64,000 nucleotides of DNA from Sporofaciens musculi (GTDB lineage: Bacteria; Bacillota; Clostridia; Lachnospirales; Lachnospiraceae). The notes below the pieces were generated by a model. The model was given only the letters and a program-made list of their open reading frames with translations. It was not told the DNA's origin and did not search any database. How positions within the stretch are numbered: the stretch's first letter is position 1; each line of letters begins with the position of its first letter. A program made the translations under genes and the position numbers. The stretch is from the NCBI RefSeq assembly GCF_009830285.1, contig NZ_WUQX01000001.1:992501-1056500 (forward strand), written 5' to 3'. Shown here piece by piece: positions 44,526 to 64,000 of the stretch.

Positions 44526-44544
44526 AATACGGAAAGGAGTAGAT

Positions 44545-44943: not shown

Positions 44944-44961
44944 ATAAAGTCAGGAGTAATG

Positions 44962-45690: not shown

Positions 45691-45708
45691 AAGAAAAGGA
45701 TGACGCAT

Positions 45709-47086: not shown

Positions 47087-47099
47087 AGAGGTATTAGAT

Positions 47100-48182: not shown

Positions 48183-48419
48183 AACGAATATTTAGATCTT
48201 TGATAGAGCGAGTTTTCTAATGAATGACAAATTTAAATAAGCACACGGGTATCTTTAGTGATCTTAGCGGAGTTTTACAGGAAATCGGCTAATACTGCTT
48301 TGTCTCAGATGCATATCATAATTATAACGTCGATAGGGGCTAAGATATGAGACACAATTAAGAAAATAACCAAACATAGGATGCGATAACACGGCATTAT
48401 TAAAAGGTAGGATTATGTT

Positions 48420-49457
48420 ATGTCAAAATTATTTTTGTTATTTAATTGCCCTTCAGGCCAGAACGATAAGCAATGGCTTGAAGATGTCTTAAGAGAACGA
48501 GGATATGATTTTGAGATCATTGAAACAAAATTATATGTTAATGTGATGTGCCAAGATGGGGTTAGGGGGAAAATGAGGTATTATTACCGCATTCTCACTC
48601 ATGCTTTCAAAGCTATTTTAAAGAGCAAGGAAAATGATATTATTATCAGTTGGTCGGATTTTACTGCTGGGTTCATCAATTTCATGAGTATGACATTGGG
48701 CAACAGACGGAAGATAATATCCATGAACTGGCTGACACCAAGGGATAAAAAGTCATATTGGGAGTATCTGGATAGGAAGCAGTTCCAGAATAAAAATGTG
48801 TTGATTACTGTAAATGCGTTAGACTCGAAGCAAAAATATCTGGAAAAGTTTCATCTGGCGAGTGGGGATAATATTTATTACATTCCGGATATATATGACA
48901 CAACGGTTGATTTTGTTGAGCCATGTTATAAAAAGAATGGTGGGAGATACATATTTACCGGAGGAATGGCAAACAGGGACTGGGGCCTCGTGATGCAGAT
49001 AGCCATCAGGTTTCCGACACTTTCCTTTGTATGTTGCGCGTTAGAACATGATTTTAAATCGAAAGTGGATGATGTGCCAGAAAATGTAAAGGTATACTAT
49101 TCTATTTCTCCTGACGAATATTATTTGCTGATGGCTGGCGCATATCTTGTCTTGATGCCTTTGATCACTTACCGAGTATCGGGATTGATAAATATTACCA
49201 GATCCGCACAGAGCGGGGTTCCCTGCCTAGTAAGCAGGTATGATTTCACTCAGATGTATTATCCAGAAGAACTCGGCAGCTGGGTTGTAGACGGTTCGGA
49301 TGTGGAAAAATGGGGGCAAGAAGTTGAGCGTGCTTTAGAGTATGCGCAAGAGCGATATATTTCAAATGTTAAGATGTTCCAGAATCATATAATAAGACAT
49401 TTTGGGCCGAAAGTGGCTTTTGAGACATTAGAAAAAATGATTTCTACATTATTATAA
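48420..49457 (+). CDS. Glycosyltransferase of unclear family
   Basis: This 345-aa protein has a GT-B like shape: an N-terminal region with IIISWSDFTAGFINFMSM, and a C-terminal half with YIFTGGMANRDWGLVMQIAIRFP, then a donor-type region (GAYLVLMPLITYRVSGLINITRSAQSGVPCLVSRYDF). It lacks the classic E-x7-E of GT4. The call as a transferase rests on fold pattern and context. No closer family was recognised. Confidence 0.65.
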   Translation: MSKLFLLFNCPSGQNDKQWLEDVLRERGYDFEIIETKLYVNVMCQDGVRGKMRYYYRILTHAFKAILKSKENDIIISWSDFTAGFINFMSMTLGNRRKIISMNWLTPRDKKSYWEYLDRKQFQNKNVLITVNALDSKQKYLEKFHLASGDNIYYIPDIYDTTVDFVEPCYKKNGGRYIFTGGMANRDWGLVMQIAIRFPTLSFVCCALEHDFKSKVDDVPENVKVYYSISPDEYYLLMAGAYLVLMPLITYRVSGLINITRSAQSGVPCLVSRYDFTQMYYPEELGSWVVDGSDVEKWGQEVERALEYAQERYISNVKMFQNHIIRHFGPKVAFETLEKMISTLL

Positions 49458-49540
49458 TTTTAGTATTATATCCGCGAATGGTATGGGCATATATTTACAA
49501 GCTGAGACATTAAAACCCTAATATAGGAGAAGGGAATGTG

Positions 49541-50125
49541 ATGATGATAAAAAATAAAGAGGAGCTATATGAATATTTAATGCAAGATGCTAAAGCAAAT
49601 GGTAGAGAATCTCTTACACCTCATCTGTTAGGAGATGATATATGGAAAAATATTGTTTGTCTGAGGAAAAAAGAGTACTATATGTCCTTAAAAGGACTAA
49701 AGCGGTTGGTGTTTCTTCCGGCAGCTACATGGAATAGAATGATAGGGGCCCGACTTGCTATAAAATGTGGATTCTTTTTTCCGGTTGGAGTCTTTGAAAA
49801 AGGTCTTTCTGTTGCACACAAAGGTACAATCGTTGTGAATAACATGGCGAGAATAGGAAGGAATTGCCGTATTCATGAAGGGGTTACCATAGGAGCTACA
49901 AATGGCTCTAATAATGCACCTCAAATTGGAAATAATGTGTTTATTGCTACAGGAGCAAAAATTATTGGTGATATTCATATTGCAGATGATGTGGCGATTG
50001 GGGCTAATGCCGTGGTGGTCAAATCTATAGATGAACAGGGTACAACATGGGGGGTGCCTGCCAGAAAAATTAGTAACAATAATTCACATTCTAATTTAAA
50101 TAAAATGTTGGAATTGGATAAATGA
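49541..50125 (+). CDS. Hexapeptide-repeat acetyltransferase (serine acetyltransferase-like)
   Basis: This 194-aa protein has a helical N-terminus, then a left-handed beta-helix: LSVAHKGTIVVNNMARIGRNCRIHEGVTIGATNG, NNVFIATGAKIIGDIHIADDVAIGANAVVV and GVPARKI. Such capsule-locus enzymes O-acetylate sugars with acetyl-CoA. The ATG at 49541 fits AGGAGAAGGG. A second, related gene follows after 12 bases, so the pair may have arisen by duplication and act on different positions. Confidence 0.85.
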   Translation: MMIKNKEELYEYLMQDAKANGRESLTPHLLGDDIWKNIVCLRKKEYYMSLKGLKRLVFLPAATWNRMIGARLAIKCGFFFPVGVFEKGLSVAHKGTIVVNNMARIGRNCRIHEGVTIGATNGSNNAPQIGNNVFIATGAKIIGDIHIADDVAIGANAVVVKSIDEQGTTWGVPARKISNNNSHSNLNKMLELDK

Positions 50126-50137
50126 AAGGAATAATAC

Positions 50138-50806
50138 ATGATAGAAAAAAAACAAGATTTAGAAGATTGGCTATCAGAAGAACGGAAAAATTACCTGAAG
50201 GAGGCTTCTTTTTTTAAATATTTTCTGCGGCTGATAGGAGGATTTGAGGATTCTATTCTTTGGAACTACCAAAGACGATTGCGAATTACAGAATACCATC
50301 TAAATGCAGGACATAAAGTGCGTTATGTATTTAGCCGAATCCGCCTGAATCATAAAATGAACAAAACTGGTATTCATATTTTTCCCAATGTCTGTGGAAA
50401 GGGGCTTAGAATTATGCATTTGGGTCCTATATTAGTCAATGGCAGAGTTCAAATGGGCGAAAATGTAAAGATACATATTATGACTTCTTTTGTTGCGGGA
50501 GGAAATAACGATGACACGCCAATAATAGGTAATAATGTAGTTATAGGGGTGGGTGCAACTATCTTAGGTAAAGCAAAAATCGCAGATGGAATTGCCGTTG
50601 GAGCCAATGCAGTTGTAAATAAATCTTTTGAAGAAAAAAATATAGCAATAGCAGGGGTGCCAGCACATAAAATTTCTGATAATGGCAGTTTGACATGGGG
50701 GGGGGTAGAAAATAGTTTAGGCATCATTGCCTATTTGTCATATTATATTGCTTTATGGTCTATAAAGAAAATGCCTTGCAGCAGTATTGTTTATCATATC
50801 AAGTAA
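50138..50806 (+). CDS. Hexapeptide-repeat acetyltransferase with a G9 tract
   Basis: This 222-aa protein is related to its upstream neighbour: [71 protein letters not shown] and GVPAHKI. After that core, nine G residues (50697-50705) lie in TWGGVEN, followed by a hydrophobic tail ([17 protein letters not shown]) not needed for the fold. A one-base change in the tract would replace only this tail. Confidence 0.82.
50697..50705 (+). repeat. G9 homopolymer near the 3' end of an acetyltransferase gene
   Basis: Nine consecutive G in an A/T-rich gene. The present length keeps the frame open to the stop at 50806. It is the second long G tract within 4.1 kb. Confidence 0.9.
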
Positions 50807-50846
50807 AGCACGTAATCTGATTAAAAAGTACAGGAGTAATAGAACT

Positions 50847-52121
50847 ATGTCAAAAACAAATATAACAATCGCCGGAACCGGTTATGTTGGCCTTTCAATG
50901 GCCGTTCTTTTATCTCAACATAATCATGTAACGGCTGTAGATATCATACCAGAAAAAGTCGTGATGATTAACAATCGTATTTCTCCGATACAGGATGAGT
51001 ACATAGAAAAATACTTATCCGAAGAATCACTAGATCTTACGGCTGTTTTGAATACAGGTGAATTAATGTCTAATAACCCGGCAGTTCAAGCTTATGCAAC
51101 TTCGGATTTTATCGTTATTACAGCTCCGACAAATTATGATCCAAAAGAAAATTTTTTTGATACACGTGCAGTAGAAGCTGTAGTAGAAATGATTATAAAA
51201 GCGACAGAAAATAATCGTTTAAAGCCGACTATTGTAATAAAATCGACAATTCCAGTAGGTTACACAGAATTACTTCGTAAAAAATATGAAACAGATAATA
51301 TTATTTTCAGTCCTGAATTTCTGCGTGAATCAAAAGCGTTGTATGATAATCTGTATCCATCTCGGATTATTGTTGGATGTGATGATAGAACCAAAACAAA
51401 GGCAGAATTTTTTGCAGAGCTTTTGAAGGAAGGCGCGGTGAAAAAGGATATTGACACACTCTTTACAGGTGTGACAGAAGCAGAATGTACGAAACTTTTT
51501 GCAAATTGCTTTTTAAGTATGCGAGTGGCTTATTTTAATGAGCTTGATACATATTGTGAATCAAAGGATTTGAATACAAAAGATGTAATTAAGGGCGTAT
51601 GTATGGATCCGCGTATTGGAGACTTTTATAACAATCCATCTTTTGGATATGGCGGCTATTGTCTTCCTAAAGATAGCAAGCAGCTGTTAGCTAATTTTTC
51701 AGATGTTCCCCAGAATATTATGAGCGCTATAGTAGAAAGTAACCGGACAAGAAAGGATTTTATCGCGGATCGTGTGCTTGCGCTTGCCGGAGCATATGGC
51801 GAGTCAGACTCATATAATCCAGCCATGGAGCAAGAAATTGTAATAGGTGTGTATCGTCTTACAATGAAAAGTAATAGCGACAATTTTCGACAGAGTAGTA
51901 TTCAAGGGGTAATGAAGCGAATGAAATCTAAAGGGGTAAAGGTTATTATCTATGAACCGACACTTGAAGATGGAACAACATTTTTCGGGAGCGCAGTTAT
52001 CAATGATTTGAATGGATTTAAACAACAGAGCCATGCAATTATAGCAAATCGTTATAATACGAAAGATTTAGACGATGTGAAAGACAAGGTATATACAAGA
52101 GACATATTTGATCGAGATTAG
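50847..52121 (+). CDS. Nucleotide-sugar dehydrogenase (UDP-glucose 6-dehydrogenase family)
   Basis: This 424-aa protein has [21 protein letters not shown] (NAD site), [40 protein letters not shown] and the active-site Cys in [16 protein letters not shown]. It oxidises a UDP-sugar twice to the uronic acid, giving an acid group that the ATP-grasp enzymes in the locus might amidate. The ATG at 50847 follows CAGGAG. It is the last clear gene of the polysaccharide locus. Confidence 0.9.
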
Positions 52122-52233
52122 TCTTAAAAGATGTACTGAAAATATTTTCTTAATTCTAATGAACTCCCAAAAATCTATTGAATTATACCCATATTTATTG
52201 TAAACTCTTGCAAATTAATATATCCCCCTTAAA

Positions 52234-52270
52234 TATGCAAAAGTGCATACAAAATATGTATATTTGCATA
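52234..52270. promoter_or_regulatory. Repeated TGCA-centred motifs, possible operator
   Basis: TATGCAAA (52234-52241), GTGCATAC (52243-52250) and TTTGCATA (52263-52270) lie within 37 bases. The first and third are reverse complements. They sit about 100 bases before an HTH gene, so an autoregulatory operator is plausible. The rest of the 52122-52367 gap holds no recognisable gene and no clear promoter. Confidence 0.45.
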
Positions 52271-52367
52271 AAAAATTATAAAACAAGCTACAAAAAGCTG
52301 GCCGCAGTGCAGTCTAAAAAAATAAAATGCAGATTAGCATATTTGGAGGAAACGGAACAACAAAATC

Positions 52368-53411
52368 ATGGAAAATGAAAAAAAACAGAAGGAGCAGATC
52401 ATCCAAAGAATATTGGCGGTAATAGAGCAAAAGATGGCCGAAAAACGGATGAAGCAAAAAGCTCTGCTAGACATATGCGCAGAGAAAGGATATGTGGTTT
52501 CACAGTCTGAATTATCCCGTATCCTTTCGCATAAGATAGCCATGGGGCTGTATCCAGCATTGGCAATCTGCGACGCATTAGACATTGATATCAACCAGAT
52601 CGTGCATCCCGACAGAGTAAAAAGAGAAACGACGTTTTTGCCGCAGAGTACGTTTGTGACAGACCCGAACAGGCCGGAGATTGAGAATTATCTGGGATCT
52701 TACCACACTTTATTTTATGCCACAGATTATCGGGAAGATAAACTGTTGCGTGGAAGATTGGAATTGTCTGCAAAAAAGAAAGAAAGTCAGGCATATTGCT
52801 CCGCGTTTTTTTCGTTGGATACGGAGGATACGGATATGTATGGGCAGCCAATTGAAAAAAGATATCAGGGACGTTTTTTTGTATCGCCGCAGATGGGAAT
52901 AGCGTATTGTTTTCTGGCAAATAATAAATTAGGAGAGATCTGCTCTCTGGAATTCCGTCATCGGACATTCTTCTATAAAAGGGTGGAATGTCGCCTTGGA
53001 TTAGTTCTGACAACATCAACAGGTGAGAAAAAGACGCCGGCGGCACATAAGATTATAGTGTATCGGGGAAAGCTTCAATCTTCACAGGAACAACAGCTTG
53101 CGCATATGCTGAAATTAGACAATGGCGAGATGCATATAGAGGCAGAAGCGCTGAAGAAAATAAATGTGCCGGAAGAAACAAGAAAACTATTAAACAGTTT
53201 GTCAGATATGCTACGGGGGACCACTTACTATACGGTTAATGCTGCAAGCCTGAAAAATGCAAACAGAAAATTAAGTAATGTGCAGATTAGCGCATTGTTT
53301 TCAATATTAAGAGACTGCTCTGAAGATGAGTATACACTACATTTGGATGCGATGGAGGATGAGATGATTTTTGATCTCATCAGCCGGGATTCCGGAAAAT
53401 CTCTGCAATAA
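52368..53411 (+). CDS. HTH (XRE-like) protein with a long unknown C-terminal domain
   Basis: This 347-aa protein has an N-terminal helix-turn-helix (KALLDICAEKGYVVSQSELSRILSHKIAMGLYPALAICDALDIDINQI, residues about 28-80), close to Cro/C1 folds. The remaining 260 residues (including LRGRLELSAKKKE, YQGRFFVSPQMGIAYCFLANNKLGEICSLEF and a helical C-terminus) match nothing I know; the middle part is beta-rich. It lies 67 bases before the next gene, so it may be co-transcribed with the defence genes and sense a signal for them. Confidence 0.7.
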   Translation: MENEKKQKEQIIQRILAVIEQKMAEKRMKQKALLDICAEKGYVVSQSELSRILSHKIAMGLYPALAICDALDIDINQIVHPDRVKRETTFLPQSTFVTDPNRPEIENYLGSYHTLFYATDYREDKLLRGRLELSAKKKESQAYCSAFFSLDTEDTDMYGQPIEKRYQGRFFVSPQMGIAYCFLANNKLGEICSLEFRHRTFFYKRVECRLGLVLTTSTGEKKTPAAHKIIVYRGKLQSSQEQQLAHMLKLDNGEMHIEAEALKKINVPEETRKLLNSLSDMLRGTTYYTVNAASLKNANRKLSNVQISALFSILRDCSEDEYTLHLDAMEDEMIFDLISRDSGKSLQ

Positions 53412-53478
53412 GGAAACGGTAAGATGAAACATTGACAGAATGATTAATTTGGAGAGAAAATAGAATGGAGTGTAGGTC

Positions 53479-54717
53479 ATGGAGTGGGAACATGAATCTA
53501 AGATTATAGACAGTATTAGAATCATTTGCAAACGATCACAGAACGAAGATTTTGTTTTTTTTGAGGAGTTTTTTAAATTATGCGGGATATTTGTGATTAG
53601 GTGCGCGGAGCCTCAGATACCACATCTGAGTGAGGATGATGAAGAATATACAGATTATGAATTAGACATTACGCACAATTTTGGGTGGATGGTACAAAAA
53701 GAAAATGAGAAAATGATGCTGAAAAAAGCGATAGAAATGGTTTATGGAGGTAATAGATCTTTCAGGGATGAGCTTTCATATCTTGCACCTGTCTATGTCA
53801 ATCATGATTTAAAGCTTCATAATATGCGGGAAAGATATTTTTATGCACCGGTTTTTTCCAGAGTGTATGAAAGTTTGGCAAATTTTCGTGCTGCGGTTAG
53901 AGAATTGGAGGAAACTAAGATTAATGGCAGGCATGTGAAATATTTTAGGATTTCCTGTCAGCACAAGATCAATGTATTACTGGGCAAATTGCACAAAGAG
54001 AAAGAATACAGCGGATATATGTTAATAGCGGACGCGTTAAATTTGTGCGGAAGGGAAAGGGGGTATACTCAGGGATATCTCCTGGCAGGTATTGTTGCGG
54101 ACGGCGATTTGCAGTTTCTCAATGACAGCATTCATTTTTATGATAATGCGTTTACCGGCAAGAAAGAGATAGATGCATATATACATTACAGAAAGGGAAG
54201 ATACTATGAAAAAATAGACCATGATGAAGAAAGGGCGCTGACAGAATATAGGAAGGCATACAGGATGGATCAATCCAATTACCGGGCATTGTTTAAGGTG
54301 GCAATTATAGAGTTAAGTATAGGCGAAATGTATATGGATTACCGGTATATACGAAGATCAATAAGTACCTTTCGGGAAATCCCAGAGCTTTTATATGACG
54401 ATATAGAAAATTGTAATTTATTACCGATTCAGTTGGAATACCTGGCAAAAACATATAAGAATTTGTATGATATCTATGATATTTGGATGGAACGAAAAAG
54501 CAGCGCTATGCAGGCGCTTTATGAGCTTTGTGATTTGGAGAGGATGATTGATGAGGATGCTTTTTTTGATCATTTCTTCGGAGATGGAGAAAAGGCGGAT
54601 GAAGAAAGAAGATTATTAAAATGTCATCTGAATCTTGTTTATTATAAAGATGAGAGGGATACCATAGATAATGATTATTATATAAACAAAAGAGGAAAGA
54701 TAGATTATGTCAAGTAG
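53479..54717 (+). CDS. Helical-repeat protein coupled to the RADAR-like ATPase
   Basis: This 412-aa, almost wholly helical protein has a TPR-like stretch around residues 232-280 (AYIHYRKGRYYEKIDHDEERALTEYRKAYRMDQSNYRALFKVAIIEL) and acidic N- and C-terminal parts. I do not recognise its family. The end overlaps the ATPase gene by 11 bases, so the two are translated together and the products probably interact. Known RADAR loci described to me have no such gene. It may be an adaptor or sensor. Starts with ATG 53479. Confidence 0.7.
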   Translation: MEWEHESKIIDSIRIICKRSQNEDFVFFEEFFKLCGIFVIRCAEPQIPHLSEDDEEYTDYELDITHNFGWMVQKENEKMMLKKAIEMVYGGNRSFRDELSYLAPVYVNHDLKLHNMRERYFYAPVFSRVYESLANFRAAVRELEETKINGRHVKYFRISCQHKINVLLGKLHKEKEYSGYMLIADALNLCGRERGYTQGYLLAGIVADGDLQFLNDSIHFYDNAFTGKKEIDAYIHYRKGRYYEKIDHDEERALTEYRKAYRMDQSNYRALFKVAIIELSIGEMYMDYRYIRRSISTFREIPELLYDDIENCNLLPIQLEYLAKTYKNLYDIYDIWMERKSSAMQALYELCDLERMIDEDAFFDHFFGDGEKADEERRLLKCHLNLVYYKDERDTIDNDYYINKRGKIDYVK

Positions 54718-57244
54718 TATATGTATCGATTTGCATAATAATTATGAAGAATATATTGAAGATGTTAAAGACTTTAACAATTCTATTTTTAAAGATGTTT
54801 ACAATAGCTTATATAAAGTGCTTAATGAGATTTTGACAGAGACACAGAATAAGAGAGGGAATATTATTACAATTCTTGGAAACAGGGGAAGCGGTAAAAG
54901 TTCTTTATTGCTATCCTTTGCAAATTCACTGGTTTCCAATAAGTACAAAGCTTTTATGGAAACGGTAATAGGTGAAGATACAAGTAAGAAAGTGTATGAT
55001 GACGTACAGTTCAGCGTGATGGATAGTTTGGATGCATCTATGTTAGATTCCAGCGAGGATGTTTTTGATATTTTATTATCAAGAATGTTAAGAAATGTGG
55101 ATGAATATTTGGAAAAGGATGCGGCTGAAGAAAGAAGGAATCGAAAATTTCAATATGATATTTTGCAGGAGTTTGATAAGATATATGAAATTCACCAGAT
55201 GATTAAGAAGGAAAAGAATAGGACAAATGAGTCGGATTTAATGTCAGGTTATTCTTCTTTGTCTTTACTTCGCAGCTTGCCGGATAGCTTAGAGATGAAT
55301 GATAAATTTAAGAAACTGGTTGACAACTATTTGGAAATCGTGTTGAGAAACGGGTGTGAATGGAGAGAACAGAAAAATTATTTGATTGTACCCATCGATG
55401 ATCTGGATATGAACGGAGAAAATGGTTTTGAAAGTCTTGAGCAGCTCTACCGCTATGTGGCTGTGAAAAATGTTATTGTAGTAGTAGCGGTAAAATATGA
55501 ACAGATTATGCATCTGGCCGAGAAAAATGGTTATAAACTTTACTCCGACAGCTGGAATAATACGGATAAAAATGAAATGGGGTATATCAATAATTACGCA
55601 AAAGAATATCTTGCGAAGCTGCTTCCAATTCAAAATAGAGTGTATATGCCGGATATGGTGCTTCATCATCAAGAAATCCGAGAAAAATGGCATGTTCAAG
55701 AGAATGGAAAAACCATAAGAGAAAATATTTTTTGTAAGATTAAAGAGGCGACAGGGATGTGTTTCTACATAAGTGGGAAGACGATGCATTTTTTAGAGCC
55801 GGAATCTTTGCGTGAATTAAGAGGATATTATGGATACTTAGACAGTCAGTTAATGACCAGGAATTTGAAAGAAAATAAAAATCAAAAAGAAATTGTGAAG
55901 GATAATATCGAGCAATTTGCCTGTGATTTTTTAAATCGTATTACAAATAGAAAATTAAGTTATGAACATAAAAGAAAAATCTTGTTTCTTTGTGAATTAG
56001 ACTATGCAGGCATGAGCGAGTATTTAATTAATAATATTTTATATGAAAAATATGGGGTGATTCCGTGCCGGTTTAAGAATAGTTACGGTGAATTGTTACT
56101 TTATTTATATCTGGCAGGCAGGGATAATCAGGAAGAAAAATTATTTGTAGATGCGATTATTATTTTCTATACGTATCTTGTACAGAGAGAAAAGATAAAG
56201 TTACAAAAAAGCGCTCGTTCCATCGGCAAAATGGATGTGATGGCGGAAATATTTCCAGACAGTTGGGCGGGAAGTTGGTCAAACTATCTTGTTCCCCAAA
56301 TAATAGAAGGAAAAATAGAAGTAAAAAAAGAAGAAAAGGATGAGCAAACTTCAGGTGATAGGAGGAGGGAAAAAGAGCAGCTATGGGGATGTATTGAAAG
56401 AATTGAACTTGTAAAAGCACATCCCTACATCCAATGGGAGTACCAAGAAATTAATCATGTATGTAATTGGATTAAAAAGAATGGAAAGAAAATTAAGGAT
56501 TTGGAGTGGATGTTTATCTTCTTTGAAGAATTTGCTTCTGAACATGAAAGAGAAAATATTGATTTAATAGTTGAACAAGATCCAGAAGATCCAGAGAGTG
56601 GAATGACGTGGTCGTTTACTAATAAGATGGCTGATTTTAACATTTTGGCATTTATAAAGCATTCTTATTATTATAGAAAATATTTTCATGAGCTTTATGG
56701 AGCTATTGCAAAAGCCTTAATCGATTTAACAAACAGTAAAGAAACAATAGATGATGTTAGAAAAGTATTAAAACAATCTTCCGCATTATACAAAGAATTT
56801 CAGAAATGGGAATCGGATAGTGAAGGGATTGCTGTGCCGTTTCACTATACGGATATCTATTATCATATGTTGTACTGGCTTCGGGAACAAGCGAGTGAAA
56901 AGAATCATTCAGCGGTTGAAAGTGACAGTGTGTTTGCGGTATTAAGAGGAGTGTATCAAGATATAAAAGAATTTCTTGAAAATCAAGACAAAGGGTATTC
57001 GCTTAATAAAAGTCGGAGGAAAAGCGCTGGATTTGCAGAAAATTTTGAGAAGTGCCCGATTATAAAGGTGTTTTTAAATAAAGCCCAAGAACCAGATGAG
57101 TATACGAAAAAAATGTTTGGCAGAATTGTTTATTGCTGTGCTGAACATGGCGGAAGTAATAAACGTTACGGTAAGTCTAAGAGGAGAGATTCCGAGGTGA
57201 CAACCAGCGATGAGCTAGGTTATGAAACATATAGTTGGAGATAG
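54707..57244 (+). CDS. rdrA: P-loop ATPase, RdrA-like
   Basis: This 845-aa protein has Walker A GNRGSGKSS at residues 58-66 and Walker B LIVPIDDLDMN with Asp231 and Asp232. A following KNVIVVVAVKYEQIM is a sensor-like strand, as in KAP/AAA+ type defence ATPases. The long C-terminal part is helical and has no named domain. Three bases separate it from a divergent adenosine deaminase gene; this pair defines the RADAR phage-defence system, where RdrA assembles with RdrB. The RADAR call depends mainly on that neighbour. A different defence ATPase is possible but less likely. Confidence 0.75.
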   Translation: MSSSICIDLHNNYEEYIEDVKDFNNSIFKDVYNSLYKVLNEILTETQNKRGNIITILGNRGSGKSSLLLSFANSLVSNKYKAFMETVIGEDTSKKVYDDVQFSVMDSLDASMLDSSEDVFDILLSRMLRNVDEYLEKDAAEERRNRKFQYDILQEFDKIYEIHQMIKKEKNRTNESDLMSGYSSLSLLRSLPDSLEMNDKFKKLVDNYLEIVLRNGCEWREQKNYLIVPIDDLDMNGENGFESLEQLYRYVAVKNVIVVVAVKYEQIMHLAEKNGYKLYSDSWNNTDKNEMGYINNYAKEYLAKLLPIQNRVYMPDMVLHHQEIREKWHVQENGKTIRENIFCKIKEATGMCFYISGKTMHFLEPESLRELRGYYGYLDSQLMTRNLKENKNQKEIVKDNIEQFACDFLNRITNRKLSYEHKRKILFLCELDYAGMSEYLINNILYEKYGVIPCRFKNSYGELLLYLYLAGRDNQEEKLFVDAIIIFYTYLVQREKIKLQKSARSIGKMDVMAEIFPDSWAGSWSNYLVPQIIEGKIEVKKEEKDEQTSGDRRREKEQLWGCIERIELVKAHPYIQWEYQEINHVCNWIKKNGKKIKDLEWMFIFFEEFASEHERENIDLIVEQDPEDPESGMTWSFTNKMADFNILAFIKHSYYYRKYFHELYGAIAKALIDLTNSKETIDDVRKVLKQSSALYKEFQKWESDSEGIAVPFHYTDIYYHMLYWLREQASEKNHSAVESDSVFAVLRGVYQDIKEFLENQDKGYSLNKSRRKSAGFAENFEKCPIIKVFLNKAQEPDEYTKKMFGRIVYCCAEHGGSNKRYGKSKRRDSEVTTSDELGYETYSWR

Positions 57245-57247
57245 GCT

Positions 57248-60200
57248 ATGAAAAATGTAAGATATATCATTGAATTATTTATAAAACATGTATCATCTCA
57301 GGATATTTTAGAGAATTCTATAACCTATGATATACTTTCCATACAGCAATTATTTATAAAGCATATACCATCTCGGAATATTTTAGAGGATTCTATACCA
57401 TACGATATACTTTCCACGCAGCAATTTTTGAAGCTGGCGCTTCCGTATACGAAGGAATATTCAGAAAGTGAGTTGGAAAATATTTACGCAGCAATCAAAG
57501 ATATGGTGCAGGTAGAATGTGAAAAACAGTTTATAAACAGTGTGAAAGCGGTTGGTTCAAAGAGCCAGCCGCTTAATCTTTTTGGTCTGTTATTACTCGC
57601 GGCGGAAAAGATGCTTCAATTTAACGGTAATGAAGTGGTATGTCAATATCGTTATCTGTTGGATTGGCGGCAATTGACGGTACAGATTAGTGAGGACACA
57701 TTTACCACGGCATTCTGTGCGATTGAGGATCTGAAATCCAGAAAAAAGAGAACGCGTTTTGATTGGCCGGCTGTAATAAGACACAATAATTTCTATTTAA
57801 ATAAATTATTGCAACAGGAATTATCAGATAACCATTTCCACTTATGGGCTTCTTCGCCGCATTTTAATCTCAGTTGGATACGAATCATGAATGATACGGA
57901 CAACCGTGATATCCGCAAGAAGATGAGTGAGCTGAATTATGATAAGCTAAATGTAAATCAGGCGTATTATCAAGGGTATCAAGAGAATAAATTTGAGATT
58001 CTCTACCTGCAGGCAGCGTTAATAAGACTATATTTATATTCCTGGTTCAGCGAAAGAGAAATACGGTTGAGAGAATACTATCTTCATGGGGCTTCTAATA
58101 AAACGATTTTTCAGCAGATTGAAGAAGGCGTAAAGCCAGAATATCTGGAGATACTGTCACAGTTAAAACGGAAGAAAGCGGAGGTAAATAATTCGTGGCG
58201 GCAGCAATACAGGGAAAAGGCAGGTAAAAAACGGAATAAAGACATTGATTGCTTTTTGAGAAAATTGGAGGAAAATGGAATAGAGATTCCGTTCGTGGAT
58301 GGGAAAGAAGAAGACATAACATTCTGGCAATGGCTGGAACATGCGTTTAATGGGTGCGGAGACAGGGAAACGATTCCACTGGCAGTTTTAGAGCCAATCC
58401 TGCAGGAAAGAGTTTATGCTATGATGTGGAAAAGATGTACGGATGAAACTGTCGAGTCATGGCTGAGGAATGGGGCACAGCTGCAGGTGAACAGCCGGAA
58501 TATCCAACTGGCAATTAACACGCTGAGGCGGGGAAGGGGATTAGCACAGCGTCAGGATTATGCTTTGTGGGGCGTGCCTGCCAGAGATCAGACGGAAAAC
58601 AAAGCCCGCTGGGAATTGTGCGGCGAGAGATATTTTCTCTATACAATGTTCCAGAAAGCATATCAGGGAAATCCGAAAGATGAGAGATACTTGAATCTGT
58701 TTTATGCATATCTGGTGATGAAAGAAAATCTCAGAAGCGAGCTTATTCAATCCAATAAGAGGATTGGCTTTCGGAATTTCCAGAAATATGACAGACGAAA
58801 AGGGATGCTGATGGATCATTCGCCCTTAGAGAATGCTGTGCTTAAATTGGCGATTGAAGATACGCTCTCCGACCCATGGCTAAGGCATCTGGAAGTCAGG
58901 ATTGTGCCAAAGGATACGATAAAGAAGAATGTAGAGTATATCCGAGAAATTGATCTTTCAGATGTGAAACAAAAGAATCTATTAGAGCGATATTATTTTG
59001 TGTACCATTTTGTGAAGGAACCGGACGATACTCCGGAAAAATTATACCGTTCTTCCTGCAGGCATGAGAGGAAAAGGATGCAGATCAGGCAGCAGGCTTG
59101 TTGTATTGCCGGTCTTAGGGAACGTTTTCCCCAGGTGGCAAAACGTGTCTTGGGAATTGACGCATGTTCAATGGAAATCGGCTGCAGACCTGAAGTGTTT
59201 GCGCAGGCGTTTCGATATTTGAAGAATCATTGTGTGGTAGAAAAGTGGAAGAATAATGACGAAAGGAATCTGCCGCAGTTAAGAGTAACATACCATGTAG
59301 GTGAGGATTTCCTGGATATTGTTGATGGCCTTCGTGCAATTGAAGAAGCTATCCATTTTCTAAATCTGGATTGTGGAGACCGTCTTGGTCATGTGCTTGC
59401 ATTAGGGCTGGATGTAAGGGACTATTATAAGGTAAAGCAAAATGTAATCTGTTTGCCTAAACAGGATTATCTTGACAATCTTGCATGGATTTTTGGCAGA
59501 ATTACAAAATATCGTCTGGGGGTGGAACTAAATAATTTACATAATTATGTGGAAAGAGAATTCAGTAAATACTTTAGTGAGGTTTACGGAGAACTTTCGC
59601 AGAAGCATAACTATAATATACGAACATATTTTGAAGCATGGAAATTAAGGGGAGATAATCCCCAATATTATAAGTTCAAAAAATTTGATAAACCTTCATG
59701 GCAGACGGGGACAAAAGGGGAATATCGTTCTTATGGCAGTTATTCTATGAATTATCAGTATCCAGAGAATTTTCATATACGAGAGACAGAAGCGGTCGCG
59801 TATCTGTATTATGCATATCATTATGACAAGAATGTAAAACTTCGTGGACAGGAGAAGCAGGAGTTTTCTGTACCAGAATGTTGGGTGGATGGTGTGGAGA
59901 TACTTCAGAAGAAGTTACAGCGTAATATTGCAAAGTGGGGGATTTCAATAGAAAGTAATCCTTCATCCAACTATATGATTTCTGTTCTTGACAGTTACGA
60001 AAATCACCCTATTGTAAAATGGTACAACCATCATCTGGTACAAGAACCAGAAAAGCTATCGCAATGCCCGCAGTTGTCAGTTTCCATCAACACAGATGAT
60101 AAGGGATGTTTCAGTACCTCGTTGGCGAATGAATATGCATTAATGGCATGTGCCTTAGAGCAGGCAAAGGATGAGAATGGATGGCCTCTTTACAGCCGCA

Positions 60201-60292
60201 CAATGATCTATGAATGGTTGGACGAGATCAGGAAGATGGGGAATCTGCAAAGTTTTCAGGAAGGGGGAGAAGAATGCATGATTATGCGATAG
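57248..60292 (+). CDS. rdrB: Divergent adenosine deaminase, RdrB-like
   Basis: This 1014-aa protein holds the full metal-site motif set of the adenosine deaminase fold, widely spread. They are HFH in SDNHFHLWAS (His196, His198), YHVGED (His683, Glu686), RLGHV (His715) and SINTDDKG (Asp950, Asp951). Long insertions between them are typical of RADAR RdrB, which deaminates adenosine in nucleotides or RNA during phage infection and forms large shells with RdrA. The N-terminus has a 25-residue tandem duplication (57275-57424). It lies 3 bases after rdrA. The deaminase call is firm; RADAR membership is inferred from gene pairing. Confidence 0.82.
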   Translation: MKNVRYIIELFIKHVSSQDILENSITYDILSIQQLFIKHIPSRNILEDSIPYDILSTQQFLKLALPYTKEYSESELENIYAAIKDMVQVECEKQFINSVKAVGSKSQPLNLFGLLLLAAEKMLQFNGNEVVCQYRYLLDWRQLTVQISEDTFTTAFCAIEDLKSRKKRTRFDWPAVIRHNNFYLNKLLQQELSDNHFHLWASSPHFNLSWIRIMNDTDNRDIRKKMSELNYDKLNVNQAYYQGYQENKFEILYLQAALIRLYLYSWFSEREIRLREYYLHGASNKTIFQQIEEGVKPEYLEILSQLKRKKAEVNNSWRQQYREKAGKKRNKDIDCFLRKLEENGIEIPFVDGKEEDITFWQWLEHAFNGCGDRETIPLAVLEPILQERVYAMMWKRCTDETVESWLRNGAQLQVNSRNIQLAINTLRRGRGLAQRQDYALWGVPARDQTENKARWELCGERYFLYTMFQKAYQGNPKDERYLNLFYAYLVMKENLRSELIQSNKRIGFRNFQKYDRRKGMLMDHSPLENAVLKLAIEDTLSDPWLRHLEVRIVPKDTIKKNVEYIREIDLSDVKQKNLLERYYFVYHFVKEPDDTPEKLYRSSCRHERKRMQIRQQACCIAGLRERFPQVAKRVLGIDACSMEIGCRPEVFAQAFRYLKNHCVVEKWKNNDERNLPQLRVTYHVGEDFLDIVDGLRAIEEAIHFLNLDCGDRLGHVLALGLDVRDYYKVKQNVICLPKQDYLDNLAWIFGRITKYRLGVELNNLHNYVEREFSKYFSEVYGELSQKHNYNIRTYFEAWKLRGDNPQYYKFKKFDKPSWQTGTKGEYRSYGSYSMNYQYPENFHIRETEAVAYLYYAYHYDKNVKLRGQEKQEFSVPECWVDGVEILQKKLQRNIAKWGISIESNPSSNYMISVLDSYENHPIVKWYNHHLVQEPEKLSQCPQLSVSINTDDKGCFSTSLANEYALMACALEQAKDENGWPLYSRTMIYEWLDEIRKMGNLQSFQEGGEECMIMR
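57275..57424 (+). repeat. 75-bp tandem duplication in rdrB
   Basis: Two adjacent 75-bp units (57275-57349, 57350-57424) encode LFIKHVSSQDILENSITYD and LFIKHIPSRNILEDSIPYD, each followed by a similar ILSxQQ. The copies differ at several bases, so the duplication is not brand new. Confidence 0.88.
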
Positions 60293-60915
60293 ATTTCGGT
60301 AAAAGAAGAACAGTGAATGCAATTATTATAGGTGTTTATATATTGGTGGCACTGATTGCGTTGATATGTTTGAATAATTGGCTGAAAGATGAAATTAATG
60401 AGATTGTTAATGAAATGATGAGTCAGTTGACTCCCAAGATATCTCTAAGTACAACCAGAATTTTTATAAAGATTGTTTTGTCAACGTTTATTCCTGGAAT
60501 AGGAATAGGGTTATTTTATGCGTTATATGACCGTATACTTTGGAAATGTGGGTGCTTTGTCCGTATACACAAAATTCCAAATCTTAATGGGAAGTGGATA
60601 GCTGAAGTAAGTTCTCCGATGAAAGGAAGGTATAAGCCTAAAATTAAAATGACGATCAAACAGACTTGGAATAAAATTCAGGTAAATGGTACTTCTGAAC
60701 ATAATACATCCACCTCCAGTGAATCGGCTTCTATTCTGGAGCAGCACGGAGTAATGTACTTTAGTTATTCTTATCGTATACAGCAGATGGGAGGGCAATG
60801 CTATCAGGGGTTTAATTCTTTGGAGATTAAAGATGATGAATTAATAGGACAGTATTTTTCTGCTAAAGATGTGGTAAATAAATTTGAGAATTGTTTCAGT
60901 AAAAAAAAACAATAA
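60274..60915 (+). CDS. Two-TM, beta-rich protein (Cap15/S-2TMbeta-like architecture)
   Basis: This 213-aa protein has two membrane helices (about residues 13-36 and 60-84), then a soluble beta-rich domain starting LNGKWIAEVSSPMKGRYKPKIKMTIKQTWNKIQVNG and ending SLEIKDDELIGQYFSA. The order 2TM plus a small beta-barrel with the GKW-type opening resembles the CBASS effector Cap15, a membrane-disrupting protein. The ATG at 60274 follows AAGGGGG, inside the last 19 bases of rdrB, so it is co-translated. RADAR accessory genes reported before are SLATT or Csx27-like membrane proteins. An A9 run lies at the extreme 3' end. Confidence 0.7.
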   Translation: MHDYAIDFGKRRTVNAIIIGVYILVALIALICLNNWLKDEINEIVNEMMSQLTPKISLSTTRIFIKIVLSTFIPGIGIGLFYALYDRILWKCGCFVRIHKIPNLNGKWIAEVSSPMKGRYKPKIKMTIKQTWNKIQVNGTSEHNTSTSSESASILEQHGVMYFSYSYRIQQMGGQCYQGFNSLEIKDDELIGQYFSAKDVVNKFENCFSKKKQ

Positions 60916-61135
60916 TAAAATATGGAATCAGGTACGCGAATTAGCTGAGGGGTGTGGAACCAAAGGTGTTATTATTTTTAGACGGGAAGAAAGATAATGG
61001 AAAATGATGATAATCTACATGAAGCGGAGAAAGCATCCTTGTATTCCAAGTTTACATATTATTGGAGATAATAGCGGGATAGTGTGATTCCTTTTGTGGT
61101 GTTAGCAAGCAGAAGAACCGTAAGCTGTTAAAAAA
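60916..61135 (+). other. Gap with possible gene remnants
   Basis: About 220 bases without a convincing gene. One frame after the A9 run of the previous gene reads KIWNQVRELAEGCGTKGVIIFRREER and stops at TAA; it looks protein-like and would be joined to that gene by a one-base loss in the tract. A 24-codon frame (MENDDNLHEAEKASLYSKF) follows. Both may be remnants of a decayed gene. Confidence 0.4.
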
Positions 61136-61144
61136 TTGCAGAAA

Positions 61145-62071
61145 GTGAGAAATGCATTGAGTTCACTTGATATCGACAATGTTAAGAGACTGCTACATAA
61201 TAAAAAGGAAGTGTGCATTTTCGTAGGAGCAGGGGCCTCCATAATGCATCCTAGTTGTCTGCCGTCTTTTCAGGAGTTAAATAATATGTTGCTTTCTTGT
61301 TTGTATCAATGTCTGTCAACGAGGGAAAAGTTTAAAGCAAGTTTAGAGAGAATCCATACAAAACCAGAGCAGCTTTTACAGATTATATGGGATTATACAA
61401 ATGGAAATTTCAATCCAGTAGAATGTTTTCAATATACAATCCCGAACAAAAATCATTATCTGTTGGCAGAACTTATAAATCAGGGGATTAATTGTATAGT
61501 AACTCCTAATTTTGATCCTTGTCTGGAAAAAGTTCTTGAGAAACGACACATAGATTTTGAATTTTTTGATAAAATTCAAAGTGAAAGCAAAGAGGCAGAG
61601 GACTTGATTCAATCCATAAAAGGGAAAAAAGTGACAATTTGGAAACCACACGGCGGCTGTAGAGAGATGCAGACACTTTGCTACACCCGAACAAAGGTGG
61701 CGAAACTTTGTAATTCGCAATATCTTAGGGAGATATTTTCTTATATTATTCAAAATTATAATATGTTGTTTTTAGGGTATAGTGGGTATGATGATGATTT
61801 TTCCCTATCTTATATGAAAATATTCCAAATTCTAAAAGGCAGGTTGTATGGAATGCTGGCGTTGGAATTTGGGAAGAAGTCCCAGTGTATGCAAAGCATT
61901 GCCCGAACTTATACCTATCTGGCGATCGCAGACGCAAAGCATGGGAAGCGAGAAACAGCTATACAAAAGTTTAGGAAATCTTATGAAATTCATAAGCAGA
62001 TTGGAGAAGGGTTAGGCTATTTTTATACTGCTTTGGAGGAATGTGAAATTGATATTTCTCAGATTCATTAG
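61145..62071 (+). CDS. SIR2-domain protein, probably truncated
   Basis: This protein of about 308 aa has the SIR2 NAD-binding marks: FVGAGAS near residue 29, VTPNFDPCLE, KPHGG and FLGYSGYDDDF. SIR2 proteins in defence systems deplete NAD+ on phage infection. After about residue 230 the sequence jumps to a short TPR-like tail (YLAIADAKHGKRETAIQKFRKSYEIHK), as if a larger C-terminal sensor had been partly deleted. No good ribosome binding site is seen. GTG 61145 is one possible start and TTG 61136 another. It may be a decaying gene. Confidence 0.68.
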   Translation: MRNALSSLDIDNVKRLLHNKKEVCIFVGAGASIMHPSCLPSFQELNNMLLSCLYQCLSTREKFKASLERIHTKPEQLLQIIWDYTNGNFNPVECFQYTIPNKNHYLLAELINQGINCIVTPNFDPCLEKVLEKRHIDFEFFDKIQSESKEAEDLIQSIKGKKVTIWKPHGGCREMQTLCYTRTKVAKLCNSQYLREIFSYIIQNYNMLFLGYSGYDDDFSLSYMKIFQILKGRLYGMLALEFGKKSQCMQSIARTYTYLAIADAKHGKRETAIQKFRKSYEIHKQIGEGLGYFYTALEECEIDISQIH

Positions 62072-62247
62072 GAATACTGGCAAAGTTCTGGACGTCTATA
62101 TTTACAGTCACATTTTTCTGATGAACAATATAAACACCTACGTTTACTATTCATATTAATAGAAAATGAATATATAATGTAAAGCTGTCAGAGTTAATTT
62201 TGAAAATTTGGATTTTTATCGAGAATATTAATGGAAGATGAATCGTA

Positions 62248-62288
62248 ATAAAAAGAGCAGAGCATATATCACTTACATGCTCTGCTCT
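62248..62288 (-). terminator. Terminator of the minus-strand surface protein gene
   Basis: AGAGCAGAGCAT (62254-62265) is the exact reverse complement of ATGCTCTGCTCT (62277-62288). Read on the minus strand, the 12-bp stem is followed by TTTTTATT. It lies 14 bases after the surface protein stop. It may also stop plus-strand readthrough. Confidence 0.85.
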
Positions 62289-62301
62289 GCAACGTCAAAT
62301 T

Positions 62302-64000
62302 TTAGACCATTTTGCGTTTCCAAACACCCAAAATAGCAATAACTGACATTCCTAACAACAAAATATATATCCCTGCATCTGTGAGATCACCGGTCTTAGG
62401 TGAACGGCTGCTGTTACTACTAGTCGTGTTTTTGGCAGTCGTCATACTGTTTGAAGACTGTTTCGCAATTTTAAATGTTGTCGCAGCCTTACCGTCTTTA
62501 AATATAATCTCTATTGTATGCGCCCCATCTTTTAAGGTATTCAGATAAGAAGGTTTAAGCGTTACGATTGTGCTTCCGCTTGTTACACTATAATTCATTG
62601 GGTCTACAACAGAGCCGTCTATTCTAACCTCTACAAACAGAGAAATATCAGCATCTGCACAGAAAGTCAGCTCTTTGTTTGAATTCATAACCCATGTGCT
62701 GCCAGCGCCTTTTATTATCTTATAATTCGGCAGCTTTTCAATAATTTCAGTCCTTGTTATCTTACATATCTGGCAGGTATAGGTCTTAACGCCCTCTGTC
62801 TGTCGTGTAGGTTCAGTCGTAATAACACCATTATCCCACTGATGCCCCTTTGCCGGAATCACTTTCAAACCTTCCAGCGTCTCGCCGCATACAGTACAAC
62901 GGATTCCAGCTTCATGTCCGCTTTCTGTACAGGTTGCTTCTAATGCAGCAACGTTTTCCTTTACATGCCCCTTTGACGGTACAATATTACCTTTTTCTAA
63001 AACGGTATTACAGAGTTTACAAATCTGATCCCCAGTATATCCGGCTTCAATACAAGTTGCATCCTTCTGATTTGTCAGAATTGGCTGATGTCCTTTTGGA
63101 ATCACCTGGCTGTCTTTTACAGCATCACATTTGCTGCAATGGATGGACTTACTTCCGTCGGTTGTACAAGCTGCTTCCTTGTCGATCGTATAATCAGTTT
63201 CCCACACATGTCCTTTGATGACCAGGCCTCGTGTCTCTGTAAAGGCACATACAGAGCATACTCTTTTATCACTTCCGGTATTCTCGCAATCAGGTGAGGC
63301 AATCTGCTTCCATTCGCCAAAAGAATGGCCTAATGCTGGTATATTTTCTCCTTTTGAAACTTCTTTGCCACAGACGATACATACCTCGTCACCGGTATAT
63401 CCAGCTTCAGTACAAGAGGCTTCCGTCTTGTTTTTCGTCTCTGTTTTATGTTCTGCGGCGCCGATTGTCTCTGTTTTAGTACCCCCACATTTAGTACATG
63501 AATAAGTAATTACTCCGCCGGTCTCACAGGTAGCGCCGTCGGCAAGCTTGCCTGAGTCCCATTTGTGCCCTGTTTTCGGAATAGCAGAGCCTTTTTCTAA
63601 TATCTCGCCGCAAACGGTACATACTTTATCGCCGGTATATCCGTCTTCCTCGCAGGTTGCGCTTTTCTTATTTTTTATTTCTTCTTTGTGTCCTAATGCC
63701 GGAAGCTCGGTCTGGGCCTTGATGACAGTATTGCATATGGAGCAATGGGAACCTTCGGTCTTGCCTGTTGTGGTACAGGTCGCTGCTACCGCCGGATCGA
63801 CTACTTCATTATGCCCTGTCTTTGGGATGGTTTCAGTTCTGGTTTCGTCGCATTCCGTACAGGTATACTTTTTCTCCCCGACTTCTGTACAGGTTGCCTT
63901 TTTAGTCACAGTCCCTTTATCCCATACATGATTGTGACCTTTGACTGCTATCGAGACAGTTCTTGTAGAGTCGTCTGCCGGTGTTGCTGCCATCTGTGAG
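62302..64000 (-). CDS. Sortase-anchored surface protein with CxxC repeats (5' end missing)
   Basis: At least 563 codons on the minus strand, open to the window edge, so the N-terminus lies outside. The visible part has about nine units of roughly 45 residues with paired cysteines, e.g. CEEDGYTGDKVCTVCGEIL, and a recurring PxTGH or PALGH turn. A globular domain follows (residues about 425-505 of the visible part). The end has SPKTGD, a membrane helix and RKRKMV-type charge, an LPxTG-like sorting signal. The protein is probably displayed on the cell wall. The spaced cysteines could bind metal or form disulfides; the function is unknown. Confidence 0.82.
   Translation of the reverse strand, partial: SQMAATPADDSTRTVSIAVKGHNHVWDKGTVTKKATCTEVGEKKYTCTECDETRTETIPKTGHNEVVDPAVAATCTTTGKTEGSHCSICNTVIKAQTELPALGHKEEIKNKKSATCEEDGYTGDKVCTVCGEILEKGSAIPKTGHKWDSGKLADGATCETGGVITYSCTKCGGTKTETIGAAEHKTETKNKTEASCTEAGYTGDEVCIVCGKEVSKGENIPALGHSFGEWKQIASPDCENTGSDKRVCSVCAFTETRGLVIKGHVWETDYTIDKEAACTTDGSKSIHCSKCDAVKDSQVIPKGHQPILTNQKDATCIEAGYTGDQICKLCNTVLEKGNIVPSKGHVKENVAALEATCTESGHEAGIRCTVCGETLEGLKVIPAKGHQWDNGVITTEPTRQTEGVKTYTCQICKITRTEIIEKLPNYKIIKGAGSTWVMNSNKELTFCADADISLFVEVRIDGSVVDPMNYSVTSGSTIVTLKPSYLNTLKDGAHTIEIIFKDGKAATTFKIAKQSSNSMTTAKNTTSSNSSRSPKTGDLTDAGIYILLLGMSVIAILGVWKRKMV

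What the first reader, a model, noticed from the sequence alone, without database searches (positions are those of the whole stretch)
53479..60915. RADAR-like locus with two unfamiliar coupled genes
An ATPase gene and a 1014-aa divergent adenosine deaminase lie 3 bases apart and carry the P-loop (residues 58-66) and the deaminase metal-site motifs (His196, His198, His683, Glu686, His715, Asp950, Asp951). This is the RdrA-RdrB pair of RADAR. Unlike described forms with SLATT or Csx27-like accessories, it is flanked by a 412-aa helical-repeat protein (11-bp overlap) and a 2TM beta-rich protein (19-bp overlap). Four co-translated genes suggest one machine with a sensor or adaptor and a membrane effector.
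Basis: partly seen in the sequence, partly recalled or inferred. Interest (0 to 1): 0.85.

Follow-up and report, generated by a model that had tools for sequence, protein, structure and literature searches.

The report
RADAR core with swappable death effectors
A bacterial operon carries a divergent version of the RADAR gene pair (an ATPase and an adenosine deaminase) together with a helical-repeat protein that recurs beside its relatives and a Cap15-family membrane protein in a slot where relatives carry other predicted effectors, so it likely fights phages by making altered nucleotides that would trigger a cell-stopping partner.

Summary
Genes 2-3 are a divergent RdrA-RdrB pair: the RdrA family profile matches S. 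suis RdrA over nearly its whole length (5e-28), the RdrB profile E. coli RdrB (1e-42). Gene 1 is a TPR protein, upstream of rdrA in 31 of 33 testable loci of one RdrB group and 0 of 51 outside; of 397 genomes 8 carry it, all with rdrAB beside it. Gene 4 is not unfamiliar: it is a Cap15 (S-2TM-beta) protein, the only one found in its genome, with no cyclase recognised beside it. In related loci this slot holds Csx27-like, SLATT-like, SIR2 or Cap15 proteins; STING occurs outside the group. Three SIR2 partners are fused to a HAM1 domain related to KomB, the dITP receptor of Kongming. Since E. coli RdrB makes ITP and dITP, I propose that this RADAR branch also signals, its inosine nucleotides gating a swappable effector. 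Family identities are shown; the gating is inferred. New variant of a known kind.

The parts
53479..54717 (+). Gene A, 412 aa: small alpha/beta cap (about 1-63) plus TPR superhelix (about 63-406); conserved core partner, candidate sensor/adaptor
54707..57244 (+). RdrA-type AAA+ ATPase, 845 aa; Walker A GNRGSGKS 58-65, Walker B DDLD 231-234, invariant R369
   Evidence: NCBIfam RdrA 5.7e-14, PADLOC RdrA 8.7e-10; family profile hits SsRdrA 8fnu 5.4e-28 and EcRdrA 8fnt 4.1e-23; invariant residues
57248..60292 (+). RdrB-type adenosine deaminase, 1014 aa; H196, H198, H683, E686, H715, D950, D951
   Evidence: NCBIfam RdrB 2.9e-50, PADLOC RdrB 1.1e-30, EcRdrB 8fnv 1.1e-42 by profile; motifs
60274..60915 (+). 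Cap15 / S-2TM-beta family protein, 213 aa in this assembly: two membrane helices plus seven-stranded beta barrel; conserved C-terminal tail runs out of frame here
   Evidence: Pfam PF18153 52.8 bits vs cut-off 31.2; PADLOC CBASS 2TM effector 4.9e-30; only PDB sequence hit is Cap15 7n34 5e-7; AF2 model, Foldseek top hits 7n35/7n34
61136..62071 (+). SIR2_2-domain protein, 311 aa, 220 bp downstream; membership in the system uncertain
   Evidence: PF13289 4.1e-14; SIR2 proteins fill the effector slot in related loci, but this one was not hit by the local SIR2 profile
52368..53411 (+). HTH regulator-like ORF, 347 aa, 67 bp upstream; membership uncertain
   Evidence: HTH_26 5.4e-4, below cut-off

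Best explanation
The locus encodes a TPR protein, an RdrA-type ATPase, an RdrB-type adenosine deaminase and a Cap15-family membrane protein as one overlapping gene row, and on phage infection the deaminase would convert (d)ATP to inosine nucleotides that likely both poison the nucleotide pool and gate the membrane protein, which is predicted to breach the inner membrane. Steps: (1) gene A with RdrA is the likely sensor/adaptor that turns RdrB on (inferred from linkage and co-inheritance). (2) RdrB makes ITP/dITP (shown for E. coli RADAR in print; inferred here from conserved residues). (3) The partner in the exchangeable slot reads that change (inferred: several slot families carry small-molecule receptor domains, and three related loci carry a HAM1-SIR2 fusion; of the two HAM1 parts compared with the PDB, one has the Kongming dITP receptor KomB as best hit and the other has it third). 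(4) The Cap15-like protein oligomerises and disrupts the membrane (reported for Cap15 and OptE; inferred here).
For: Identity. Gene A is core: 31 of 33 testable loci inside one RdrB group and 0 of 51 outside (tree); 8 of 397 family genomes carry gene A, all 8 among the 15 with rdrB and next to it (hypergeometric 4.5e-13); pairwise distances of gene A track RdrA (r 0.91) and RdrB (r 0.82) in 32 loci, 0 of 2000 permutations as high. Swappable slot: 25 of 39 group loci have exactly one effector-family hit directly beside the core, and 25 of 29 such hits are adjacent; effector class needs at least 10 changes over 24 rows of the RdrB tree. Cap15 linkage: 5 of 10 database relatives of the window's Cap15 protein share the exact longest-contig length of an RdrB or gene A hit (7900, 9810, 8972, 24269, 10058); a Cap15 fragment lies 140 bp upstream of gene A in L020; PF18153 occurs in 1 of 49 searched RdrB genomes (L020, adjacent) and once in the window's genome, here. 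Nucleotide gating: Ham1p_like fused to SIR2_2 beside the core in L008 (6.4e-35), L011 (1.5e-23) and L012 (3.7e-27); the L012 domain's best PDB hit is KomB 8zsg 1.1e-23, the L008 domain's third is KomB 8.1e-24; KomB is activated by dITP (PMC12948488, PMC12774641 passages); E. coli RADAR makes ITP and dITP (PMC9994260 section 13); STING domains occur in 2 of 49 RdrB genomes, both one or two genes downstream of rdrB.
Against: No HAM1 domain was found in the window ORFs scanned; Cap15 is known to bind cyclic dinucleotides, not ITP, so its ligand here is a guess. Csx27-like and SLATT-like partners, the commonest (17 of 25), have no shown nucleotide receptor domain, so a common nucleotide trigger is not needed. 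14 of 39 group loci show no assigned effector, so the slot may be dispensable. The slot families were seeded from slot genes, which biases the adjacency count. 7 of the 15 rdrB genomes of the family draw lack gene A. One STING case (L052) has its own CBASS cyclase next to it. RdrA and RdrB score far below the NCBIfam equivalog cut-offs (51.5 of 600; 171.7 of 800). I have no expression or phage data.
Confidence: 0.5

Rival explanations
1. Protein-contact gating: gene A-RdrA-RdrB assemble on infection and switch the partner on by direct contact; nucleotides are only the poison arm, and the partner is a second, contact-triggered arm.
For: The partners belong to different families (Csx27-like, SLATT-like, Cap15, SIR2), so a common trigger could be contact with the conserved TPR protein; a TPR superhelix is a typical protein- or peptide-binding scaffold (general knowledge).
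Against: Cap15, STING, SIR2-STALD (ThsA-type) and HAM1-SIR2 partners carry domains that elsewhere bind small molecules, which contact gating would leave unused.
Confidence: 0.25
2. Loss-of-ligand gating as in Panoptes: the Cap15-like protein is held off by a host adenine-based cyclic dinucleotide, and RdrB starves or deaminates that ligand, releasing the protein.
For: OptE, a homologue of Cap15, is inhibited by its nucleotide and kills when it is removed (PMC12657218 passages; PMC12657230 passages). No cyclase was recognised beside the window's Cap15 gene.
Against: EcRdrB acts on ATP and dATP, not on AMP or adenosine; cyclic dinucleotides are not mentioned in what I read. The HAM1-SIR2 partners point to gain of an inosine nucleotide.
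Confidence: 0.15
3. Stray CBASS effector or defence-island neighbour: the Cap15-like gene serves a cyclase elsewhere, and gene A and rdrAB are simply near it.
For: The genome has a DncV-like cyclase and an mCpol gene in two frames. A related Cap15 protein in G304 lies directly next to a SMODS cyclase, an ordinary CBASS layout.
Against: The genome's cyclase has its own S_4TM effector nearby and its mCpol a CARF_TM-like neighbour. Cap15 overlaps rdrB by 19 bp and appears linked to it in other contigs and to the core in L020.
Confidence: 0.07

Closest known systems
RADAR (E. coli, C. rodentium, S. suis; Duncan-Lowey 2023, PMC9994260: abstract, Results part 1, sections 12-14 and passages read)
   Same: rdrA-rdrB order; Walker motifs; RdrB zinc and catalytic residues; RdrA family profile scores S. 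suis RdrA best
   Different: Divergent (23-26% identity to six of the seven plasmid RdrB records, 40% to the seventh; identity to E. coli RdrB not computed); two extra co-directional overlapping genes, TPR protein and Cap15-like protein
Csx27- and SLATT-associated RADAR (Gao 2020, seen only through PMC7699616 and PMC11676413 passages)
   Same: A small membrane protein next to rdrAB
   Different: Here the membrane protein is Cap15-family; related loci with Csx27-like or SLATT-like partners also carry gene A. PMC7699616 calls the SLATT form rdrABCD, so one further gene may already be described there; the original paper is not held
Cap15 of CBASS (PDB 7n34/7n35)
   Same: 2TM plus beta-barrel receptor; sequence and fold match
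   Different: No CD-NTase recognised beside it; sits in a RADAR row; conserved C-terminal tail in its close relatives
Panoptes OptE / 2TM-beta (PMC12657218, PMC12657230, passages read)
   Same: Same S-2TM-beta family
   Different: No mCpol recognised beside it
Kongming KomA-KomB-KomC (PMC12948488, PMC12774641, passages read; PDB 8zsg)
   Same: Deaminase-derived dITP as immune signal; HAM1-like and SIR2 domains recur, fused, beside this RADAR core in L008, L011, L012
   Different: The deaminase is RdrB with an RdrA ATPase, and the window's own effector is Cap15-like instead of HAM1-SIR2

Membership tests
RADAR | RdrA-type AAA+ ATPase with Walker A and B, homologous over its length to a validated RdrA | tested here: met
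   Profile of 28 incl. the window vs SsRdrA 8fnu 5.4e-28, columns 70-816 of 851; invariant G58, G61, G63, K64, D231, D232
RADAR | RdrB-type deaminase with His tetrad and catalytic Glu | tested here: met
   EcRdrB 1.1e-42 by profile, 1.4e-16 by the single sequence; H196, H198, H683, E686, H715
RADAR | rdrA and rdrB adjacent in one row | tested here: met
   3 bases apart; an RdrA hit lies upstream of rdrB in 98 of 108 loci, and 9 of the 10 misses have under 1.4 kb of upstream sequence
RADAR | ATP to ITP conversion on infection; giant RdrA-RdrB assembly | not testable with these tools
   Needs biochemistry and cryo-EM
NCBIfam RdrA/RdrB equivalogs (NF041743, NF041744) | Curated cut-offs of 600 and 800 bits | tested here: not met
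   51.5 and 171.7 bits: not a member of these narrow groups
Csx27- or SLATT-associated RADAR subtype | Csx27 or SLATT protein beside rdrAB | tested here: not met
   Partner is Cap15_CD_rec
Cap15 / S-2TM-beta protein family | Two membrane helices plus Cap15 beta-barrel domain | tested here: met
CBASS system | CD-NTase beside the effector | tested here: not met
   No cyclase among 15 ORFs of 44959-63993 by Pfam, 6 of them also by PADLOC. Limit: Pfam missed the cyclase of L052 that PADLOC found
Panoptes system | mCpol beside the 2TM-beta effector | tested here: not met
   The only PF18182 place in the genome is G000:C2 3.30 Mb, in two frames, with a CARF_TM-like neighbour
Kongming system | KomA, HAM1-like KomB and SIR2 KomC | tested here: not met
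   No Ham1 domain in the window ORFs scanned; a local HAM profile hits only L008, L011, L012 among 108 loci

The most novel reading that the evidence does not exclude
RADAR is not only a nucleotide poison but a second-messenger system: in this branch RdrB's inosine nucleotides are the signal, a TPR protein is the missing infection sensor, and the operon plugs in one of several receptor-effectors (Cap15 barrel, HAM1-SIR2, STING, SLATT, Csx27), making RADAR, Kongming and CBASS interchangeable halves of one signalling toolkit. The window's Cap15 protein would then be a Cap15-type receptor for a non-cyclic or inosine nucleotide.
Probability: 0.33. Interest if true: 0.9.

Novelty: new variant of a known kind. 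Interest (0 to 1): 0.7.

Why it matters
What feature of infection activates RADAR was left open by the 2023 structural paper, and the role of its accessory membrane proteins is not explained in what I read. This branch offers a conserved candidate sensor (gene A) and natural swaps of the output arm, including a KomB-like HAM1 domain fused to a SIR2 effector. That turns 'is ITP/dITP a poison or a signal?' into a direct test, and would join RADAR, Kongming and Cap15/STING receptors in one scheme.

Tried and rejected
Gene A as a TIR domain: the N-terminal beta-alpha-beta look suggested TIR, but Pfam scans of 10 relatives gave TPR and weak unrelated hits, and the 60 PDB profile hits shown (of 128) gave no TIR protein, the named ones being TPR proteins with the odd designed or enzyme chain; dropped. 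The cap (about 1-63) was not folded or searched alone, so nothing is said of its fold.

Phage carriage: no RdrB relative in 50,697 phage records; one match cut by a contig end in IMG/VR with the alignment (L081), none with the single protein; Cap15 alignment none; HAM1-SIR2 of L012 none. Plasmids: 7 of 72,556 records, all under 60% identity. No Rfam match in 44000-64000 and no tRNA in the window.

Labels of slot genes: PADLOC Csx27 hit 6 of the 7 Csx27-like proteins tested; the seventh, L079 (outside the group), hit only PDC-M48A. The local SLATT profile was iterated and may drift: L007, L085 (the locus that L129 extends) and L135 pass the Pfam DUF4231 cut-off; L013, L083 (extended as L127) and L028 are below it; L014 has no Pfam hit and L128's hits do not support SLATT. 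L128 was left out of the class-change count (24 rows). Not counted as linked: the L026 gene A hit (28 bits, downstream of rdrB) and the L015, L016, L019, L060 SLATT hits that are not adjacent. The first ORF callers missed the Cap15 start and gene A in L135; counts come from the stop-to-stop search.

Rows dropped before the tree: 11 of 108 loci, cut or duplicate (L030, L040, L051, L053, L059, L062, L064, L081, L134, L139, L146). Near-duplicates L076/L138 and L037/L039 stayed in. The tree is a quick LG+G4 tree; the 38-row group has SH-aLRT 92, below the starred level, and the outgroup has long branches. The effector-class changes (10) were matched or beaten by 14 of 200 shuffles (mean 12.4), so the class is close to random on the tree.

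Full report
WHAT IS THERE. The window is G000:C2:992501-1056500 of a 5.76-Mb, three-contig genome. Its name is not given; the best-matching named RdrB loci are mostly Lachnospiraceae, so I take it for one of that family (inference).

THE RADAR PAIR. Gene 2 matches RdrA in PADLOC (8.7e-10) and NCBIfam (5.7e-14), and gene 3 matches RdrB (1.1e-30; 2.9e-50). Both are far under the NCBIfam equivalog cut-offs, so they are divergent. A profile of 28 RdrA proteins hits S. suis RdrA (PDB 8fnu; identity of the entry from PMC9994260) at 5.4e-28 over columns 70-816 of 851, and E. coli RdrA at 4.1e-23. A profile of 26 RdrB proteins hits E. coli RdrB at 1.1e-42. S. suis RADAR was shown to defend E. coli (PMC9994260, Results part 1 read), so the pair belongs with tested RADAR systems although its own activity is untested.

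GENE A. The 412-aa protein has no hit in PADLOC, Pfam or NCBIfam by itself. Its AlphaFold2 model (31 sequences, mean pLDDT 89) is a small alpha/beta cap plus a TPR superhelix; TPR and similar helical-repeat proteins lead the Foldseek and VIA lists, and relatives give mostly weak TPR hits. Survey: 145 RdrB-like stretches were found in GTDB genomes and the best 80 kept; with 20 loci fetched after genome search, one viral contig, the window and six plasmid loci, 108 loci were examined, some of them duplicates. Gene A occurs in 33 of the 108. On a tree of 97 all 32 gene A rows fall in one 38-row group (SH-aLRT 92). Counting only loci with at least 4.3 kb upstream, gene A is present in 31 of 33 inside the group (absent in L007 and L060) and 0 of 51 outside; 5 inside and 8 outside were too short to test, and one of these, L011, has it. 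In a draw of 397 genomes of the family, rdrB occurs in 15 and gene A in 8, all 8 among those 15 and next to rdrAB; the other 7 rdrB genomes lack it. A class draw gave rdrB in 6 of 391 genomes, the window's included. In the window's genus rdrB occurs in 5 of 12 genomes, but the four others show no gene A in the loci fetched (one of them cut short), so this cassette was probably gained horizontally. Gene A distances follow RdrA (r 0.91) and RdrB (r 0.82) in 32 loci. I conclude that gene A is a core part of this RADAR branch. Whether it equals a gene in Gao's 'rdrABCD' form could not be checked: the paper is not held, and I saw only the sentence in PMC7699616.

A SWAPPABLE SLOT. Immediately before gene A or after rdrB (under 600 bp, same strand), 25 of 39 loci of the group have exactly one hit to an effector family: Csx27-like 9, SLATT-like 8, SIR2 6, Cap15 2; 14 have none. 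The profiles were seeded from slot genes, so the count is descriptive. Independent checks: PADLOC Csx27 for six of seven tested (L002, L019, L036 yes, L079 no; L010, L131, L132 yes); Pfam DUF4231 over cut-off for L007, L085 and L135, under it or absent for the other SLATT-like proteins tested. Close relatives differ in class (L002 Csx27-like, L011 SIR2, L020 Cap15 in one starred set), and the class needs at least 10 changes over 24 rows. Outside the group a TM-STING gene follows rdrB by 2 bp in L061 (prok_STING 4.3e-12), and in L052 rdrB is followed by a CBASS cyclase (427 bits) and a TIR-STING gene with gaps of 17 and -1. STING was found in 2 of 49 searched RdrB genomes, both at these places, and Cap15 in 1 of 49 (50 loci given each time, L067 not held, so 49 of the genomes behind my loci).

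THE CLUE TO GATING. Three of the six SIR2 partners (L008 overlapping gene A by 8 bp, L012 59 bp before gene A, L011 overlapping rdrB by 29 bp) are fusions of a Ham1p_like (inosine triphosphatase family) domain with SIR2_2. The L012 domain's best PDB hit is KomB (8zsg, 1.1e-23); for the L008 domain KomB ranks third (8.1e-24) after two chains of archaeal NTPase PH1917; L011 was not compared. In Kongming, dITP binds KomB and switches on the SIR2 protein KomC (PMC12948488 and PMC12774641, passages). In E. coli, RADAR makes ITP and dITP as early as 5 min after infection (PMC9994260 section 13). The simplest reading is that in this RADAR branch the product of RdrB is also a signal. Two more SIR2 partners (L018, L022) carry ThsA/ThsB-type domains; the sixth, L009, has SIR2 with a STAND NTPase domain.

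MECHANISM PROPOSED. Infection is sensed by gene A with RdrA (inferred); RdrB is switched on and converts (d)ATP to (d)ITP (inferred from homology); the nucleotide change poisons replication and gates the slot partner (inferred); here the partner is a Cap15 barrel that would oligomerise and break the membrane (inferred from Cap15/OptE). The identity of its ligand is open. Contact gating and loss-of-ligand gating remain real rivals.

NOVELTY. The parts are known families. I found no held paper that joins RADAR with Cap15, a TPR protein, or HAM1-SIR2: the term searches were made, whose listings I saw; passages on RADAR were read in PMC9994260, PMC7699616, PMC11676413, PMC12948488, PMC10952713 and PMC12669630, and the two Panoptes papers do not hold the word RADAR. 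Most subscription papers, the Gao 2020 RADAR paper among them, are not in the library. I rate it a new variant of a known kind, with a testable claim that RADAR can be a signalling system.

Noticed in passing
window 60901-60996: Homopolymer-length difference shortens the Cap15-like protein to 213 aa; the otherwise near-identical protein in the database (P0123, 240 aa) and the ten relatives have a conserved C-terminal GCG(S/T)KG-type tail. Real variant or assembly error.
   Followed up: partly
window 57273-57422: Tandem 75-bp duplication (85% identical) gives RdrB a repeated 25-aa stretch near its N-terminus that the 28 aligned relatives lack.
   Followed up: no
L052:4076-6084 (same contig as L134): rdrB followed at 17 bp by a CBASS cyclase and, overlapping by 1 bp, a TIR-STING gene: a RADAR-CBASS composite row.
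   Followed up: partly
L061:11655-12314: TM-STING gene 2 bp after rdrB; Pfam names no cyclase in the next two genes, though Pfam can miss them.
   Followed up: partly
L008:3595-5295, L012:3798-5186, L011:6789-8246: HAM1-SIR2 fusions beside gene A-rdrA-rdrB: a likely one-protein version of KomB-KomC.
   Followed up: partly
L018:5662-7641, L022:11636-13651: SIR2-STALD-ThsB_TIR fusion, a single-chain Thoeris-like protein, 167 and 52 bp after rdrB.
   Followed up: no
L001:1-11934 and L011:126-10634: Tandem copies of the RADAR cassette (R-B-A-R-B; A-R-B-SIR2-A-R).
   Followed up: no
G000:C2:3299485-3299825 (L164): mCpol (Panoptes-type enzyme) in two overlapping frames, followed by a CARF_TM-like piece; looks broken.
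   Followed up: no
window 45700-47086: Two neighbouring TupA-like ATP-grasp ORFs (306 and 158 aa) that look like a full and a partial copy.
   Followed up: no
window 61136-62071: 311-aa SIR2_2 protein 220 bp after the Cap15-like gene, so the window may hold two effectors.
   Followed up: partly
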